This document shows, in pieces, positions 8,979 through 27,365 of a stretch of 27,830 nucleotides of DNA. The DNA is from a virus. The DNA lies in IMG/VR virus record IMGVR_UViG_3300009419_000072, positions 1 to 27,830 of that record. The stretch is one strand, 5' to 3'. The notes under the pieces were generated by a model. That model had not been told where the DNA came from and searched no databases. It saw nothing but the letters and a program-made list of their open reading frames with translations. A program made the translations under genes and the position numbers. Position 1 is the stretch's first letter; each line of letters begins with the position of its first letter.

Positions 8979-10178
8979 ATGCCATATATTTTAAAGAAAA
9001 CAGACGGAACTACACTAACAACGGTACAAGATGCATCGATTGATAGCTCAACTGGATTAACCTTTGTAGGTAGAAACTATTCAGGATACGGTCAGCCTGT
9101 TGAAGAAAACTTTGTTAAGCTTCTTGAAAATTTTTCAAATACTTCGCAACCATCTAAACCTGTTCAAGGACAATTATGGTTTGATAAAACTTCATCTGTT
9201 AGACGTCTACTAGTTTGTTATGATGGAACAAATTTTAGAGATGTGTCAAACGTTCCGTATGGCACAACTGAACCTGCCAATCCACAAACTGGTGATCTAT
9301 GGTGGGACTCTTTTAACAGTCAAATTAAAGTTTATAATTCTGTTGATAACTCTTGGACAGCAAGTCAACCATATGGTGGCGCAAGTAGTTCTTGGGATTT
9401 TGGACGAGTTGAAGATTCAAATTCAAATAACCAAAATGCAATTAAAGGTCTATCTGGCAACACAGTAATGCTAATGATTTCTAATACAAGGTATGTTCCT
9501 AATTCAGTTACAGGACTTGATATTAGATTCCCTAATGTTAAAACAGGTATTACTTTTCCTAATGCCGATCCAGTTACCGGTAGTTCGGCAGCGTCTACTT
9601 CTACTGGATATATTCTTTGGGGAACAGCGGCAGAATCTTTGATTACTCAAAAGATAGACTTACAACCTACCAATGATACAGGTCTGCATTACATTCCGTT
9701 TGCTACAGCTACAACTGGTCAAAATAACTTATACACCACAAGTACATTTAGTTTTAACCCTACTACCAATGTTTTAAATGTTACTGCGGCTAGTGCCTTA
9801 TATGCTGACATTGCAGAACGTTACGAAGCAGATGCAGTCTACGAACCCGGCACCGTTTTAATGATTGGCGGCGAAAAAGAAGTTACTATTGCCTGCTTTA
9901 GTGCTACGACAGCGGTAGCAGGTATTGTGTCTACAAAACCCGCTTATATGATGAATTCTGAGGCAGGATCCGACGAAACTCACCCCTATATTGCCTTAAA
10001 AGGCCGAGTTCCTTGCAAGATTTGTGGCCCTGTTAAGAAAGGCGACCTACTAGTTGCTAGCGGATACAAACACGGCTACGCTACCAAGAAGCAAGATCAC
10101 GACAGTTCGGATGCTGTAATAGGAAAAGCCCTACAAGATTTTGCAGGGCCTTTTGGAGTTATTGAAGTTAAAGTTTAA
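8979..10178 (+). CDS. Fibre-like virion protein with peptidase-G2-like C-terminal domain, 399 aa
   Basis: The first ~115 residues repeat the GRNYSGYG / GQLWFD / GDLWWD module of the preceding gene. A middle beta-rich region follows. From about residue 275 the sequence ADIAERYEADAVYEPGTVLM, then KGRVPCKICGPVKKGDLLVA, and a final GPFGVIEVKV resembles the peptidase G2 (autoproteolytic intramolecular chaperone) tail found on phage fibres and spikes. In that family the C-terminal part helps trimerisation and may cleave itself off; whether this one cleaves cannot be told here. AAGAAG lies shortly before the ATG. The stop codon overlaps the stop of thyA on the opposite strand. Module calls are from memory of the families. 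Confidence 0.65.
   Translation: MPYILKKTDGTTLTTVQDASIDSSTGLTFVGRNYSGYGQPVEENFVKLLENFSNTSQPSKPVQGQLWFDKTSSVRRLLVCYDGTNFRDVSNVPYGTTEPANPQTGDLWWDSFNSQIKVYNSVDNSWTASQPYGGASSSWDFGRVEDSNSNNQNAIKGLSGNTVMLMISNTRYVPNSVTGLDIRFPNVKTGITFPNADPVTGSSAASTSTGYILWGTAAESLITQKIDLQPTNDTGLHYIPFATATTGQNNLYTTSTFSFNPTTNVLNVTAASALYADIAERYEADAVYEPGTVLMIGGEKEVTIACFSATTAVAGIVSTKPAYMMNSEAGSDETHPYIALKGRVPCKICGPVKKGDLLVASGYKHGYATKKQDHDSSDAVIGKALQDFAGPFGVIEVKV
10124..10154. terminator. Possible bidirectional terminator at the convergent gene junction
   Basis: GCCCT (10128-10132) pairs with AGGGC (10145-10149) around a 12-base loop, and flanking AAAA/TTTT extends the stem with one bulged base. On the minus strand it would follow the thyA stop by about 25 bases and run into TTTTCC. 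On the plus strand it lies just inside the coding region and its T-run is short. Weak support. Confidence 0.35.
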
Positions 10179-11059
10179 ACCGCCATTGGTGCTTTGATAG
10201 CATCGTGGCTTTCATATCCTACTAATTCAATATCGTCCATTTCAAAATCTGTAATAACTCCTACATCAGGATTCAACTGTAAAGTTGGTAACGGTAGGGG
10301 TTTTCTTTTGAGTTGTTCTTTAACTTGCTCAACATGGTTACTATAGATATGGGCATCGCCAATTGAAATAATTAAGTCGCCTACTTCTAAGTTACATACC
10401 TGTGCAAGCAAGTGTGTGAATAATGCATATGATGCAATATTAAATGGAATACCAAGGAACATATCTGCAGAACGTTGATACATCTGACAACTTAGTTTTC
10501 CGTTGTTGACATAGAATTGTGCCATCATGTGGCAAGGCGGCAACGCCATTAGATCAATTTCACCAGGATTCCATGCTGTAATAATATGTCTGCGGCTGTA
10601 TGGATCTTCTTTTAATCCTGCAATTAACTCTAGCAATTGATCGTGATTTTGTAGAACAACTTTGTTAATACGTATTAATGGTTTGCGCCATCTACGCCAT
10701 TGTACCCCGTACACTCTGCCAAGATCAGATGCGTTACGTTGATGACGACGATTAATCCAGTAGTCAGCTGTAACGTTATCGGTCCAAATAGTTCTCTTGC
10801 TAGTATCTCGGGTTCCGTGCAAAATCTCAGCAAGGCGTCTTTCGTCTCCGCTTCCTTCGATGAACCACAACAATTCACTTACCACGGCCTTCCATGCTAA
10901 TTTTTTTGTAGTAACAGCGGGAAATCCTTCTGTAAGATCGAATCGCATTTGCAATCCAAAAATACTTTTGGTGCCAACACCTGTTCGGTCCGGCCGATCA
11001 TCGCCGTTATCTAAAATGTTCTTCAATGCGTCTAGATAAACTTTTTCTGGATGTGTCAT
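10175..11059 (-). CDS. thyA: Thymidylate synthase
   Basis: Converts dUMP to dTMP using methylenetetrahydrofolate. At 294 aa it is slightly longer than the 264-residue E. coli enzyme. Visible landmarks are DRTGVGT (residues 22-28), DPYSRRHI (152-159) with the paired arginines that bind phosphate, ALPPCHMMAQF with catalytic Cys176, QRSADMFLG (195-203), GIPFNIASY with Asn207, and DAHIYSNH (235-242). Asn207 is the residue that selects dUMP; dCMP hydroxymethylases have Asp there, so this is a true thymidylate synthase. It overlaps the upstream folA stop by four bases (ATGA), so the pair that makes and recycles the folate is co-translated. Its stop overlaps the plus-strand stop at 10176-10178. Confidence 0.96.
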   Translation of the reverse strand: MTHPEKVYLDALKNILDNGDDRPDRTGVGTKSIFGLQMRFDLTEGFPAVTTKKLAWKAVVSELLWFIEGSGDERRLAEILHGTRDTSKRTIWTDNVTADYWINRRHQRNASDLGRVYGVQWRRWRKPLIRINKVVLQNHDQLLELIAGLKEDPYSRRHIITAWNPGEIDLMALPPCHMMAQFYVNNGKLSCQMYQRSADMFLGIPFNIASYALFTHLLAQVCNLEVGDLIISIGDAHIYSNHVEQVKEQLKRKPLPLPTLQLNPDVGVITDFEMDDIELVGYESHDAIKAPMAV

Positions 11060-11532
11060 AGATTATATTCTTTTATAGTATATTTTACTGGTTCAGTAAA
11101 TGTAACATGTTCTTTTACTTTTGTAAAGTGATTTTTTACATAGGTTAAATCAAAGAACTTATCGCAGGTGTACTCTGCATCAATTTCTGTTACATAAAAT
11201 CGATCAATAATATCAAGGTATTGCTCATAAATGGCACTTCCGCCTATGATGAATATTTCTTTATCGGGATATTCTACAGAACAGTAATCTAATGCACTAC
11301 CACAATCGTCAAAAGTGTGATCGCCTAGTTCTCTCTTTCTGCTTATCACTACATTAATTCTATTAGGTAAAGATTTGCCCAAGCTATCGTATGTAGTTGA
11401 TCCCATAATGACAACTTGGTTAGTAGTCATTTGTTTAAACCAATTCATATCGCCCTTAAGGCGAGGCCAGGGCATCTGACCATTAAATCCGATGCCCTGG
11501 TTTTTCTCTACTGCTACTAAACAGTTAATCAT
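11056..11532 (-). CDS. folA: Dihydrofolate reductase
   Basis: Reduces dihydrofolate with NADPH, regenerating the cofactor consumed by thymidylate synthase. The 158-residue length is normal for the family. Motifs in order are GIGFNGQMPW (residues 13-22) in the substrate loop, the acidic Asp28 in KGDMNWFK, MGSTTYDSLG and LPNRINVVISR in the NADPH-binding region, and IIGGSAIYEQYL (95-106). MGSTT replaces the more usual MGRKT, a small departure. The start shares four bases with the stop of the upstream 197-residue gene and the stop shares four bases with thyA, so all three are translationally linked. The folA-thyA order mirrors frd-td of T4. Confidence 0.94.
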   Translation of the reverse strand: MINCLVAVEKNQGIGFNGQMPWPRLKGDMNWFKQMTTNQVVIMGSTTYDSLGKSLPNRINVVISRKRELGDHTFDDCGSALDYCSVEYPDKEIFIIGGSAIYEQYLDIIDRFYVTEIDAEYTCDKFFDLTYVKNHFTKVKEHVTFTEPVKYTIKEYNL

Positions 11533-15161: not shown

Positions 15162-15190
15162 ATTATATACTCATTTAGCGTCTTTGTCAA
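15162..15190 (-). promoter_or_regulatory. Consensus sigma-70 promoter for moxR
   Basis: On the minus strand TTGACA (15185-15190) and TATAAT (15162-15167) are both perfect, with a 17-base spacer. The -35 lies in the last codons of the gene ending at 15171. Transcription would start near 15155, giving a leader of about 55 bases before the moxR ATG. Host RNA polymerase should use this early in infection. Confidence 0.85.
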
Positions 15191-18237: not shown

Positions 18238-19092
18238 TTAAGTACCCCACTCGTTTTTAAACAAAGGCACCTGCAATCTGTCGCTATAGCGAAGACCATT
18301 TTTCATGGCCGCTAGTGCCACTGCTTTGTTATTTAACGAGTAAACACTTTCTACTCCGCCAACCGGCATTAAGTAGACGTGTCCTTTAAATCCTTCTTTG
18401 CGGAATTCTTCTGTTGCTTTGAGTGCATCTGCAATATCTTGTTCTGTTGCTACAACAAACTTCAAATACACTGTGCCTACAGTTTCATAATCACAAACAA
18501 CTTTGGGTTTAATAGCATCTTTCCAAGGCTCGCCACTTGCAGGAAGTTTAGCACTTACACTAAAAGTAATCTCACGATTAAATTCTGTATTAGGCATTTG
18601 CCATGCTATTAGATATTCTTTAAACTTAGGTGTTAACCGCATTGTACCGTTTGTTTCGAAAGTAATTTCTTTTAAACCTGCCATGCAAGGTTGCTCTAAC
18701 AAATCTGGATAAGCACGTTGCCACCCTAGTAAAGGCTCGCCGCCTGTGATAACCAAATGCTCGTCTTGCCATTCCTTAAAAGGTAATGTATCGACAACCG
18801 CTTTGGCAAGGCCCTCAACTTCGATCATTGGGCTAAGATCTTTAAATGCAGGATGCCAACTTGCGTAACTATCGCACCCTGTACTAACAAGTGGAAGAGA
18901 TTTGTATTCTTTAAATTCAACAGCACGTTCTGCAATTTGATCTGCTTCGGTGCTTAGTTTGCCGAGCTCCATACCAAACCCTTGACAGGTAAAGTTGCAT
19001 CCATATGTTCTTAAGAACACAGACGGCACACCCATATAGCGACCTTCGCCTTGGATGGAATAGAATAATTCTGATACTTTAATTTTACTCAT
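18238..19092 (-). CDS. queE: QueE-like radical SAM enzyme (7-carboxy-7-deazaguanine synthase homologue) with split cluster motif
   Basis: QueE turns 6-carboxytetrahydropterin into 7-carboxy-7-deazaguanine, a step toward preQ0. The N-terminus ELFYSIQGEGRYMGVPSVFL and RTYGCNFTC match QueE (compare IQGEG...VRTAGC in Bacillus). ITGGEPLLGW (residues about 115-124) is the SAM-binding GGEP motif. The cluster cysteines are unusual: Cys32 and Cys36 fit CxxxC, but the third ligand seems to be Cys73 in TGCDSYASW, which aligns with WCDSAFTW of Bacillus QueE. A stretch of 36 residues (GFGMELGKLS...) is thus inserted between the second and third cysteines. 284 aa is longer than common QueE proteins (about 220-245). 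Overlaps the MazG-like gene by eight bases. A DpdA-like protein and a QueD-like protein lie about 5-9 kb away. Confidence 0.78.
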   Translation of the reverse strand: MSKIKVSELFYSIQGEGRYMGVPSVFLRTYGCNFTCQGFGMELGKLSTEADQIAERAVEFKEYKSLPLVSTGCDSYASWHPAFKDLSPMIEVEGLAKAVVDTLPFKEWQDEHLVITGGEPLLGWQRAYPDLLEQPCMAGLKEITFETNGTMRLTPKFKEYLIAWQMPNTEFNREITFSVSAKLPASGEPWKDAIKPKVVCDYETVGTVYLKFVVATEQDIADALKATEEFRKEGFKGHVYLMPVGGVESVYSLNNKAVALAAMKNGLRYSDRLQVPLFKNEWGT

Positions 19093-19360
19093 ATATGTTA
19101 GACCATTTCTTTAATTTTTCAATTTTAGCATACTTTGCCGACTCTAAGCAAGCCTCTGAAACTACGTTCATCTCTTTCAAGATATCAATCATTGCAAGCA
19201 TGTCGCCAAGTTCTTCTTCCAAATGTTCTCGGTTTGTTTTTGGCTTACCGGGCTTAAAGTTATCAATGCCAAATCGACTAATTTTACTAACTGCTTGAAT
19301 TACCTCTGCACATTCTTCTTGTAGAATGTCCATAACTTCTTTAATTTTTGCTGATTCCAT
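19085..19360 (-). CDS. MazG-like nucleotide pyrophosphohydrolase
   Basis: A 91-residue all-alpha protein with LQEECAEVIQAVSKI (Glu15, Glu16, Glu19) and HLEEELGDMLAMIDIL (Glu50, Asp53), the EExxE...ExxD metal site of MazG-type NTP pyrophosphatases. Such enzymes hydrolyse (d)NTPs or nucleotide alarmones; phage versions are thought to tune nucleotide pools, although the true substrate differs between cases. It is the first gene behind the strong promoter at 19384-19411 with AGGA before the ATG, so it should be expressed early. It is co-directional with the QueE-like gene and overlaps it by eight bases. Confidence 0.85.
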   Translation of the reverse strand: MESAKIKEVMDILQEECAEVIQAVSKISRFGIDNFKPGKPKTNREHLEEELGDMLAMIDILKEMNVVSEACLESAKYAKIEKLKKWSNIYE

Positions 19361-19383
19361 GATTCGTCCTGAGTGGATAAGTA

Positions 19384-19411
19384 ATTATACATTAATATTT
19401 AGATCTGTCAA
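19384..19411 (-). promoter_or_regulatory. Consensus sigma-70 promoter for the MazG/QueE-like/exonuclease series
   Basis: On the minus strand TTGACA (19406-19411) and TATAAT (19384-19389) are perfect, with a 16-base spacer. Start would be near 19377, leaving a leader of about 17 bases to the ATG at 19360. It occupies nearly the whole 57-base gap to the divergent plus-strand gene at 19418, so that gene's own promoter must overlap it or read from farther away. Confidence 0.85.
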
Positions 19412-19417
19412 CGACCT

Positions 19418-20362
19418 ATGGAAAATTTAACTACTAAAATACATTGGATACTTAATGATTACTGTAGAGCACAGTGTAGTTATTGTCCAACCCAAATAAG
19501 CGGAGGAGGGCTTCCTGCCGAAACCAAAGATTACATTCGCGCCGCTAACACCATTATTAATTCGTATAAAGCCGCAGGAAGAGAAATTGATTGGACATTT
19601 ACAGGCGGTGAGCCGCTTGACATGAATGACATTGTTGTTTTATTAAAATTATGTCGGGCTAACGGACGATCAATGACACTACATACAAATGGTGGAAAGC
19701 TATGGATGGATTGGTGGGCCATAGAACCGTATGTAGATGTATTACATCTTACATTTCATTATTGGCAACAACCTGCTTTAATGAAATATATTATTGATGT
19801 ATTTCGAAATAAAAATAAAACCTTCTACATCACTGCGCCTATACGCCCTGATTATTTTAAAGAAGATTTAAATCGAATATTGTTATTAGAAGATACAGCA
19901 GATATTCTTATTCTAAAAACATTACTGTACAGGGAAGCAGACCAAACAATAGGTATGTTTAATTATAATGTAGATGATTTATGTACACTTGATCTTTATA
20001 ATCAACCAAAGGCAGAGCGGGCACGTATAATTGAAGCAAATAAAAAAAGAACAGAACCTGGTCCGTTAACTCCGTCTGCAAAACAAAAAGTTTATATAGA
20101 TAACACTAGTTGGAATGATCGCCATGTTAATACATTCAAAGCTCATCCTAGTTACACACATCAGCTGTGTAATGCAGGTGTAGAATTTTTAAATATCGGA
20201 GCACAAGGTTGGGTATCGGGTAGTGTTTGCAGAAATACCACACTTGGAAATATTTGGCACGATGGATGGAGTTTAAATGTAGAGCCTCAGCGATGCTCAA
20301 TGATTTCGTGCGTCCATGAATCTGATCGACGTATTACAAAATTCCCTTTGACCGACCAGTGA
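19418..20362 (+). CDS. Radical SAM protein with C-terminal four-cysteine (SPASM/twitch-like) region
   Basis: A 314-residue protein. CRAQCSYC (Cys16, Cys20, Cys23) is the classic CX3CX2C 4Fe-4S site, and FTGGEPL (61-67) is the SAM-binding motif. LTFHYWQQP and FYITAPIRPDYF follow in the barrel. The C-terminus has Cys251 (HQLCNAGVEF), Cys271 (GSVCRNTTLGN), Cys293 and Cys298 (QRCSMISC), spaced like an auxiliary iron-sulfur cluster; the GN-W pattern resembles SPASM-type proteins. Those enzymes usually modify peptides, proteins or sugars, and no substrate is visible here. It is the only plus-strand gene between 10.2 and 27.8 kb, divergent from the QueE-like series and overlapping the cupin gene tail to tail by 29 bases. 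No clear Shine-Dalgarno before the ATG. Confidence 0.85.
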   Translation: MENLTTKIHWILNDYCRAQCSYCPTQISGGGLPAETKDYIRAANTIINSYKAAGREIDWTFTGGEPLDMNDIVVLLKLCRANGRSMTLHTNGGKLWMDWWAIEPYVDVLHLTFHYWQQPALMKYIIDVFRNKNKTFYITAPIRPDYFKEDLNRILLLEDTADILILKTLLYREADQTIGMFNYNVDDLCTLDLYNQPKAERARIIEANKKRTEPGPLTPSAKQKVYIDNTSWNDRHVNTFKAHPSYTHQLCNAGVEFLNIGAQGWVSGSVCRNTTLGNIWHDGWSLNVEPQRCSMISCVHESDRRITKFPLTDQ

Positions 20363-25808: not shown

Positions 25809-27365
25809 TTACTCTCCTAAATCTTGTTCAAGTTTACGCAGTTCTTCATCTTCTGGATTTTCTAGATCGATTTCGTCTGCTCTTGTAACTTCTTCTACTT
25901 CAAATAATCCACCAAACAAGTTGTCGTTCTGTCCATTGGTTGTGTTACGAGCACCGGCAATACTAACTAAGAAAGATTTAGCCTGTGGACTTTCTAACAT
26001 TTCCATAGCTTCGTCTAATGTTTTTGTTTCAAATAATTCTGAAACAAATCTATCAAAGTATAGAATACTACGTGGAATCCATTCGCTGAACTGATCGCTA
26101 CTAGAATCTTTTGCGTTTAGTTTCTTCCAATGTCTCCAGTCTGGCTTAAAACGAGTGCATTCGATATCTGCTAAATGATTAGCTTTTTGTACAGCATCAA
26201 TATGACATTGAACATTATGACCCATATACAATGCATAAGCAAAACTATCCCAAGAAGTTTTACCTTCTTTGCCAATCTTGTTTAGCATACCTGGCGCATA
26301 GTGACAAATGTCACCCATTGTTAACCTGCGGCCAATTTCGCTTTCAAACGGGAACGGTATGTCGGAACCGGCAAGTCCTTTGTTGTCTGGGGCTTTTTCC
26401 ATAACAACGCTGAACTTTTTCGCTGTGTGGACTGCTCCTGTGTAGACGAGGCCGTGTGCTGTTGCGACAAACGGTGAGGCGCAATCAAAAGATATGGTAA
26501 GGTTTTCATTGATGTGTTTCCTAAGTTGACGTTGAATTGAAGTTAGATAGCAAGCCCAATCTAACTGTGCTGTACCCAAGAAGTGGATCCAGTCCTTGCC
26601 AGTGAGCATGCCTTCCTCTCGCATGATCATTAGACGCTTCAGTGTCATGTCCATCTTAGACATATTGACACCTCCCATCGCCCATCCTTCGGCGGCCTTA
26701 TCGCCCCATACCTTAGGATCACTGAATTCTTTTACACCTTCGTACCACTCTTGGGCACTTAGCCAATCGCTACCTTGTAGCACATTTAACCATTTAGTCC
26801 TTCCTAGTCTGTTTTCTAAGAAGTACTTGTTGTTAAAACGAGTTTTCTCTAAACAGTCAGCAGGACTAGTCAACCCTGTACGAGGCTGATTATTTTTATC
26901 ACACGCCCAAATTGGAACGTCTAGCATCATTGACCAGTCAGCAGTCATCTCTAACCAGCCGATAATATCGTCACGAGTTTTATTAGCGGCCTTGCCTTCG
27001 AAGTCTTTCCAGTCAAACTTAAGAATACCCTTACCAATCTGGTATCCTCCAGAGTCACCTAGAATCATTGTGTTGGCATGATCTCGCTGTTGAACCATAC
27101 TTTCTTGTGTATAACTCTTTACTAGATCTAATTGTGCGTGTCCTGCAGAATACAAAGCATACTTGTATGTAAAGTATCCTTGTTCTGCGTTAAGGAAGTT
27201 CATGCCTTCGATTCCACGATCAAATCCTGCTGGAATTCGATCTTTAGGCACAAACTCACCTTCTCTTTGTTTAGCAATATAAGTGCTATAGAAAGAACTA
27301 ATTGCTGGCAAATAGACAGCATAGTCTTTCTGTAATGGTGATAGGTTAACTGGTGGTCTGCTCAT
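25809..27365 (-). CDS. dpdA: DpdA-like transglycosylase (tRNA-guanine transglycosylase superfamily)
   Basis: A 518-residue TGT-superfamily protein. GDSGGYQIG (residues 103-111) carries the first catalytic Asp (Asp104), MMLDVP (147-151) has the second conserved Asp, NVLQGSD (194-200) matches the TGT VQGG loop, WAMGGV (229-233) the GGL/SVGE region, HFLGTA (261-266) the MGVG region, and SFDCASP (292-298) the nucleophile (Asp294). The usual tRNA-binding VLPTR segment after FDC is replaced by ASPFVATAHG, and the CxCxxC zinc motif is not visible, although GHNVQCH (382-388) aligns with the HNL zinc histidine. Known phage DpdA enzymes exchange guanine in DNA for preQ0-type bases. Length (518 versus about 375-430 for bacterial TGT) and divergence fit DpdA better than a host Tgt. 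Overlaps the upstream gene by 20 bases. Confidence 0.8.
   Translation of the reverse strand: MSRPPVNLSPLQKDYAVYLPAISSFYSTYIAKQREGEFVPKDRIPAGFDRGIEGMNFLNAEQGYFTYKYALYSAGHAQLDLVKSYTQESMVQQRDHANTMILGDSGGYQIGKGILKFDWKDFEGKAANKTRDDIIGWLEMTADWSMMLDVPIWACDKNNQPRTGLTSPADCLEKTRFNNKYFLENRLGRTKWLNVLQGSDWLSAQEWYEGVKEFSDPKVWGDKAAEGWAMGGVNMSKMDMTLKRLMIMREEGMLTGKDWIHFLGTAQLDWACYLTSIQRQLRKHINENLTISFDCASPFVATAHGLVYTGAVHTAKKFSVVMEKAPDNKGLAGSDIPFPFESEIGRRLTMGDICHYAPGMLNKIGKEGKTSWDSFAYALYMGHNVQCHIDAVQKANHLADIECTRFKPDWRHWKKLNAKDSSSDQFSEWIPRSILYFDRFVSELFETKTLDEAMEMLESPQAKSFLVSIAGARNTTNGQNDNLFGGLFEVEEVTRADEIDLENPEDEELRKLEQDLGE

What the first reader, a model, noticed from the sequence alone, without database searches (positions are those of the whole stretch)
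19418..20362. Lone opposite-strand radical SAM protein with a C-terminal four-cysteine region
It has the classic CX3CX2C plus CX19CX21CX4C near its end, typical of an auxiliary cluster, and is the only plus-strand gene in about 17 kb. It has no nearby precursor peptide and faces the QueE-like transcript back to back. It could modify a sugar, peptide or virion protein.
Basis: partly seen in the sequence, partly recalled or inferred. Interest (0 to 1): 0.6.

Follow-up and report, generated by a model that had tools for sequence, protein, structure and literature searches.

The report
Phage accessory twitch-type radical SAM enzyme
An uncultured T4-like freshwater phage carries a genuine, strongly conserved iron-sulphur radical enzyme of an uncharacterised viral family, inserted backwards in a long operon with what looks like its own late promoter; what it modifies is unknown, though its bacterial cousins sit in peptide-toxin operons, so a protein target is the best guess.

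Summary
Window 19418-20362 (+) encodes a 314-aa radical SAM protein with CX3CX2C and, near its end, CX19CX21CX4C. It is the only plus-strand gene between 10.2 and 27.8 kb. The seven cysteines are invariant in every complete member of a family of 72 distinct IMG/VR proteins, and pN/pS is 0.02-0.2. The predicted fold (pLDDT 90) is a radical SAM barrel plus a C-terminal part resembling 'twitch' auxiliary-cluster domains; SkfB, a peptide maturase, ranks first. No relative was found in isolated phages.

New: the gene is accessory. It is gained or lost at least 9-12 times on the QueE tree, always at the same spot beside QueE and always reversed. It travels with a divergent control region: a perfect early promoter that restarts the QueE operon (64/64 with the gene, 0/44 intact without) and, facing the gene, a T4-type late-promoter-like site (60/60 within one mismatch). 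At this locus it tends to replace folE, which argues against 7-deazaguanine DNA modification. Distant bacterial relatives (20-22% identity, same cysteines) include two from Vibrio-type plasmid operons with a GG-leader peptide and C39 exporter.

Best reading: a late-expressed enzyme acting on a protein or peptide, possibly a virion protein. The substrate is not shown.

The parts
19418..20362 (+). radical SAM / twitch-like protein, 314 aa
19463..19486 (+). codons of C16, C20, C23: CX3CX2C, predicted SAM-binding [4Fe-4S] site
   Evidence: invariant in 93/93 rows
20168..20311 (+). codons of C251...C271...C293...C298: predicted single auxiliary Fe-S cluster (twitch-like)
   Evidence: invariant in all complete members; aligned to SkfB C-terminus
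19376..19383 (+). GATAAGTA, T4-type late-promoter-like site (NATAAATA with one mismatch), 42 nt before the ATG
19384..19411 (-). perfect sigma-70 early promoter TTGACA-N16-TATAAT with CTAAATA in the spacer, driving MazG-QueE leftward
   Evidence: 12/12 match; present in 64/64 rSAM+ intergenic regions
19085..19360 (-). MazG-type pyrophosphohydrolase, next gene back to back
   Evidence: PF03819
18238..19092 (-). QueE-like radical SAM protein, constant neighbour of the gene
   Evidence: phrog_2076 E 8e-52; neighbour in all loci not cut by a contig end
20334..20798 (-). cupin-like protein (phrog 'cysteine dioxygenase'), convergent neighbour
   Evidence: phrog_4786 E 3e-39

Best explanation
The gene encodes a real radical SAM enzyme with one auxiliary Fe-S cluster in a twitch-like C-terminal domain (sequence and predicted fold shown here; cluster binding inferred). 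It is an accessory gene of a large clade of uncultured T4-like phages, repeatedly gained or lost at one fixed place beside queE and always in the opposite direction (shown). Because it lies backwards inside a long early operon, it comes with a divergent control region: an early sigma-70 promoter that restarts the MazG-QueE operon and a T4-type late promoter that drives the enzyme (sites and their conservation shown; activity inferred). Most likely it is made late in infection and uses a 5'-deoxyadenosyl radical to remove a hydrogen from a residue of a protein or peptide encoded elsewhere in the phage or the host. The auxiliary cluster would take an electron or position the substrate, giving a crosslink, epimerised residue or dehydrogenated residue. 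A virion or other late protein is the leading candidate (inferred).
For: Core motifs and all four C-terminal cysteines invariant; purifying selection. AlphaFold model pLDDT 90.1, pTM 0.87. Best structural matches include peptide-acting radical SAM enzymes: SkfB Z 15.5, SuiB, EpeE, PqqE and anSME; profile match to SkfB E 1.9e-5, best over the C-terminal half. Full-length relatives (20-22% identity, same C-x2-G-x-E...C...G-x-I...C-x4-C...TK signature) on Vibrio and Photobacterium plasmids, in operons with a 95-aa protein bearing a GG-type leader, a C39-peptidase ABC exporter, HlyD, a HlyC-type acyltransferase and a SelO-like protein. Accessory state: 23 QueE loci with the gene, 50 without; at least 12 changes on the QueE tree, 9 forced. 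Early promoter in 64/64 regions with the gene; in 1.3 kb upstream of QueE without it, 1/44, and that one is decayed. ATAAATA is the late-type motif of these phages (25 against 0.48 expected and 19 against 0.32) and precedes virion-like genes. Before this gene a match with at most one mismatch occurs in 60/60 distinct loci (shuffles about 24); loci that lost the usual site have an exact NATAAATA closer to the ATG.
Against: No substrate identified, no adjacent precursor, and no GG-leader ORF in the parts of two long genomes searched. The bacterial relatives are only 20-22% identical and just three contexts were seen. Structural matches to peptide enzymes are nearly tied with nucleotide- and sugar-acting ones (viperin Z 14.3, BlsE 14.2, MoaA 13.3). 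In most loci the late-promoter site is one base off consensus (GATAAGTA), and that exact variant is only weakly enriched genome-wide. No RNA data.
Confidence: 0.42

Rival explanations
1. It is part of the QueE / 7-deazaguanine pathway and further modifies a deazaguanine base or precursor for DNA (or tRNA).
For: QueE is the constant neighbour. MazG, a phosphoribosyltransferase, a GMP reductase-type protein and a putative DpdA-like protein cluster nearby.
Against: Close QueE relatives (47-81% identity) keep the operon without it in 50 loci, and so do Paride and BUCT-ZZ01. At this locus it excludes folE (0/47 with the gene, 13/31 without), and whole records with it have FolE in 4/14 against 13/15. 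QueC was over its cut-off in 1 and QueD in 3 of 22 records with the gene. It is transcribed away from the operon and seemingly late.
Confidence: 0.15
2. It acts on a small molecule such as a nucleotide or sugar, in the manner of viperin, MoaA, BlsE or BtrN.
For: N-terminal similarity to viperin profiles (PADLOC pVip E 1.5e-8; NF038283 2.6e-6). Model matches viperin Z 14.3, BlsE 14.2, MoaA 13.3. Sugar-nucleotide genes (galE, GT-like) nearby.
Against: The viperin match covers only about 100 residues of the generic core and is far under the curated cut-off (26.8 against 180 bits). The solved viperins lack the C-terminal cluster (own knowledge). galE is absent from most loci with the gene.
Confidence: 0.25
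3. It modifies a host protein, or makes a peptide with a phage or host precursor, to inhibit a host process or a competing phage (a moron-like RiPP system).
For: Bacterial relatives sit in microcin-like operons; accessory distribution.
Against: No exporter, immunity or precursor gene nearby; no GG-leader ORF in the long contigs searched.
Confidence: 0.15

Closest known systems
SkfB (sporulation killing factor sactisynthase, PDB 6efn) and other twitch-type radical SAM enzymes
   Same: radical SAM barrel plus C-terminal twitch-type region with four conserved cysteines; top structural and profile match
   Different: no N-terminal peptide-binding (RRE) domain, no adjacent precursor, different cysteine spacing, 13% identity
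Radical SAM proteins of Vibrio/Photobacterium and Nocardia plasmids (WP_308388256.1, WP_340642545.1, WP_011212318.1)
   Same: full-length alignment with the same C-terminal signature
   Different: 20-22% identity; lack the phage-specific WMDWWAIEP block and carry an extra cysteine (CX4CXC); the Vibrio/Photobacterium pair lies in peptide-export operons
STM4011 family radical SAM proteins (NF038073)
   Same: similar C-terminal region (E 1.7e-6 for one family member)
   Different: far below the curated cut-off (17.7 of 200 bits for the window protein)
Viperins (NF038283; PADLOC pVip)
   Same: similar N-terminal core
   Different: match limited to the core; cut-off not met; C-terminal cluster differs
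Radical SAM proteins reported in T4-like Methylophilaceae phage VP_139 of Lake Baikal (PMC7678222)
   Same: T4-like freshwater phage with radical SAM genes and methionine adenosyltransferase; MetK also occurs beside QueE in some loci here
   Different: no sequence comparison was possible; that paper tied its radical SAM genes to PQQ synthesis

Membership tests
Radical SAM superfamily (PF04055) | CX3CX2C and profile match above the gathering score | tested here: met
   32.7 bits against 29.5; invariant in the family
Radical SAM superfamily (PF04055) | binds [4Fe-4S] and cleaves SAM | not testable with these tools
   needs protein
Twitch (single auxiliary cluster) | about four conserved C-terminal cysteines after the barrel | tested here: met
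   definition from PMC6231123
Twitch (single auxiliary cluster) | canonical spacing CX9-15GX4C ... CX2C | tested here: not met
   CX12GX6C ... CX4C in the window protein
Twitch (single auxiliary cluster) | C-terminal fold of the twitch type | tested here: inconclusive
   whole-chain matches to SkfB, MoaA and BtrN; rmsd 4-6 A; the C-terminal part was not searched alone
SPASM | seven-cysteine motif, two auxiliary clusters | tested here: not met
   four cysteines only; no SPASM match in the Pfam scan
RiPP maturase | precursor peptide encoded nearby | tested here: not met
   no adjacent ORF; no GG-leader ORF in the long contigs searched
RiPP maturase | N-terminal RRE domain (not universal) | tested here: not met
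   the chain starts directly with the barrel, first strand at residues 5-11
Viperin (NF038283) | score over the curated cut-off of 180 bits | tested here: not met
   26.8 bits
QueE | score over TIGR QueE cut-offs | tested here: not met
   26.1 against 260 bits
STM4011 family (NF038073) | score over the curated cut-off of 200 bits | tested here: not met
   17.7 bits

The most novel reading that the evidence does not exclude
A phage-encoded, late-expressed radical SAM enzyme installs a radical post-translational modification (crosslink, epimerisation or thioether) on one of the phage's own virion proteins, and the gene spreads among T4-like phages as a cassette with paired early and late divergent promoters.
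Probability: 0.22. Interest if true: 0.82.

Novelty: new variant of a known kind. Interest (0 to 1): 0.5.

Why it matters
More than a hundred uncultured freshwater viruses carry this enzyme family and no isolated phage in the collection searched does, so it has gone unnoticed. Its repeated gain and loss at a single site gives matched genomes with and without it, which makes the substrate question testable. Enzymatic radical modification of a virion or late phage protein would, as far as I know, be new. The promoter arrangement shows how a phage can insert a late gene backwards into an early operon without silencing the operon.

Tried and rejected
A fold test of the neighbouring DpdA-like protein (25809-27365) gave pLDDT 57 and was not used; no Pfam, PHROG or PDB sequence match either, so 'DpdA' stays a lead resting on a DSGGYQ motif and gene context. 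The single genome-contig scan found only one unrelated radical SAM protein; further bacterial relatives could not be collected because the genome search needs a genome handle as centre. The phage nt-1 DpdA2 record was sought and not reached. A lateral-transfer reading from bacteria was dropped for lack of sequences. The stronger GT association of gene-bearing loci (41/47 against 5/31) is probably a distance effect, since GT is ancestral (Paride, BUCT-ZZ01). The apparent '+RSAM' in L233, L235 and L237 is an antisense MazG ORF caught by single-linkage clustering.

Full report
What is there. ORF 19418-20362 (+) encodes 314 aa. It matches only the general radical SAM family in Pfam (32.7 bits, cut-off 29.5). 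No NCBIfam model reaches its cut-off, and PHROGs give only weak partial matches. It is the only plus-strand gene between 10175 and 27830. The intergenic gap to MazG is 57 bp and it overlaps the convergent cupin gene by 29 bp, so there is no room for a precursor gene.

Family. tblastn against 50,697 phage records finds no full-length relative. IMG/VR holds many: 37 loci with the single sequence, 174 candidate relatives with a profile. Across 72 distinct proteins (41-100% identical to the window's) the barrel and C-terminal cysteines are invariant wherever the sequence reaches them. So are W10, G63-G64, the WxDWWA block, G254, E256, I260 and G264. A proline-rich linker of variable length separates barrel and C-terminal domain in some members. 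Close pairs show pN/pS 0.02-0.2. In genome contigs only an unrelated radical SAM protein was hit.

Fold. With 47 family sequences AlphaFold gave pLDDT 90.1, pTM 0.87. Foldseek and VIA-align place it among auxiliary-cluster radical SAM enzymes: SkfB first (Z 15.5), then a near-tie of viperin, BlsE, SuiB, PqqE, EpeE, MoaA and anSME. A family profile hits SkfB at 1.9e-5, best over the C-terminal half. The SkfB paper (PMC6231123) defines twitch as the one-cluster truncation of SPASM and warns that fold and function are hard to predict from sequence similarity networks in this group. The cysteine spacing here (CX12GX6C...CX4C) is a variant of the canonical one. Cluster binding is inferred.

Bacterial cousins. 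Plasmid searches found three full-length relatives at 20-22% identity sharing the C-terminal signature. In Vibrio and Photobacterium the gene lies in an operon with HlyC-type acyltransferase, SelO-like protein, glycosyltransferase, a 95-aa glycine-rich protein whose N-terminus (MFNLTNDEIVMVDGGG) looks like a double-glycine leader, HlyD and a C39-peptidase ABC exporter. That is a microcin-like context and is the main reason to prefer a peptide or protein substrate. The Nocardia copy lies with another radical SAM gene and a methyltransferase.

Place and control. In all 92 IMG/VR loci, and in 12 of 13 further ones (the last is cut by the contig end), the gene is plus and QueE minus, adjacent or separated by one to three genes (MazG, HIT or inserts). 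The intergenic region carries, on the minus strand, TTGACA, a CTAAATA box and TATAAT (window 19411-19384, 12/12), present in 64/64 distinct regions. On the plus strand lies GATAAGTA or a variant. In two long genomes ATAAATA is the most enriched 7-mer before genes (25 against 0.48, 19 against 0.32) and precedes several virion-like genes (my reading of their sequences), as expected for a T4-type late promoter. Before this gene a match with at most one mismatch occurs in 60/60 distinct loci, against about 24 in shuffles. Loci that lost the usual position (L008, L009, L015, L049, L052) carry an exact NATAAATA nearer the start. The second perfect early promoter of the 15-27.8 kb region (15190, minus) lacks the adjoining site, so it is not simply part of the early promoter. 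These loci are related, so the counts are not independent.

Accessory nature. Scanning with QueE itself shows 23 loci with the gene and 50 without it among those with 1.3 kb or more of upstream sequence. Without it, MazG, cupin, phosphoribosyltransferase and other genes continue on the minus strand and the early promoter is missing next to QueE (0/44 intact). L220 has a decayed promoter (-10 lost) near QueE, MazG and cupin adjacent, and no enzyme gene, which looks like a loss. On a QueE tree of 108 rows the state changes at least 12 times, 9 forced by supported branches. Long branches warn against over-reading single events. Paride and BUCT-ZZ01 keep a related block without it.

Against the deazaguanine reading. 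folE lies near QueE in 13/31 loci without the gene and 0/47 with it. Whole records with the gene have FolE in 4/14 against 13/15 without. QueC (1 over the cut-off) and QueD (3) are rare among 22 records with the gene. Fragments and phylogeny weaken these numbers, but they run opposite to what a partner in that pathway would show.

Conclusion. A real, selected, twitch-like radical SAM enzyme; accessory; probably late; probably acting on a protein or peptide encoded elsewhere. The first three statements are well supported, the late timing moderately, the substrate class weakly.

Noticed in passing
19384-19411 (-) and 15162-15190 (-): Early promoters of these phages share a CTAAAT box inside the TTGACA-TATAAT spacer; the same arrangement appears upstream of other operons in related contigs.
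   Followed up: partly
L034, L035, L068, L159 near QueE: Some relatives carry an S-adenosylmethionine synthetase (MetK) gene beside QueE and this enzyme, perhaps supplying SAM.
   Followed up: partly
25809-27365 (-): 518-aa protein with a DSGGYQ motif, about 41% identical to proteins of PA5oct/Paride-like phages; possibly a divergent DpdA/TGT but no family or fold match obtained.
   Followed up: partly
L220 about 3290: Apparent scar of a lost copy: decayed early promoter left beside a probable homing-endonuclease insert (unclassified) and QueE.
   Followed up: yes
L160 (Pseudomonas phage Paride 94-107 kb): Paride/PA5oct-like jumbo phages share the QueE, exonuclease, MoxR-like, GT-like and putative DpdA block with this window, without the radical SAM gene.
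   Followed up: yes
L039 11362-11649 and L040 11252-11539: Small glycine-rich proteins with double-glycine-type leaders in a plasmid operon with radical SAM, SelO-like and HlyC-like proteins: a possible unusual microcin family.
   Followed up: no
10175-11532 (-): Phage thymidylate synthase and dihydrofolate reductase genes side by side (by sequence appearance, not tested).
   Followed up: no
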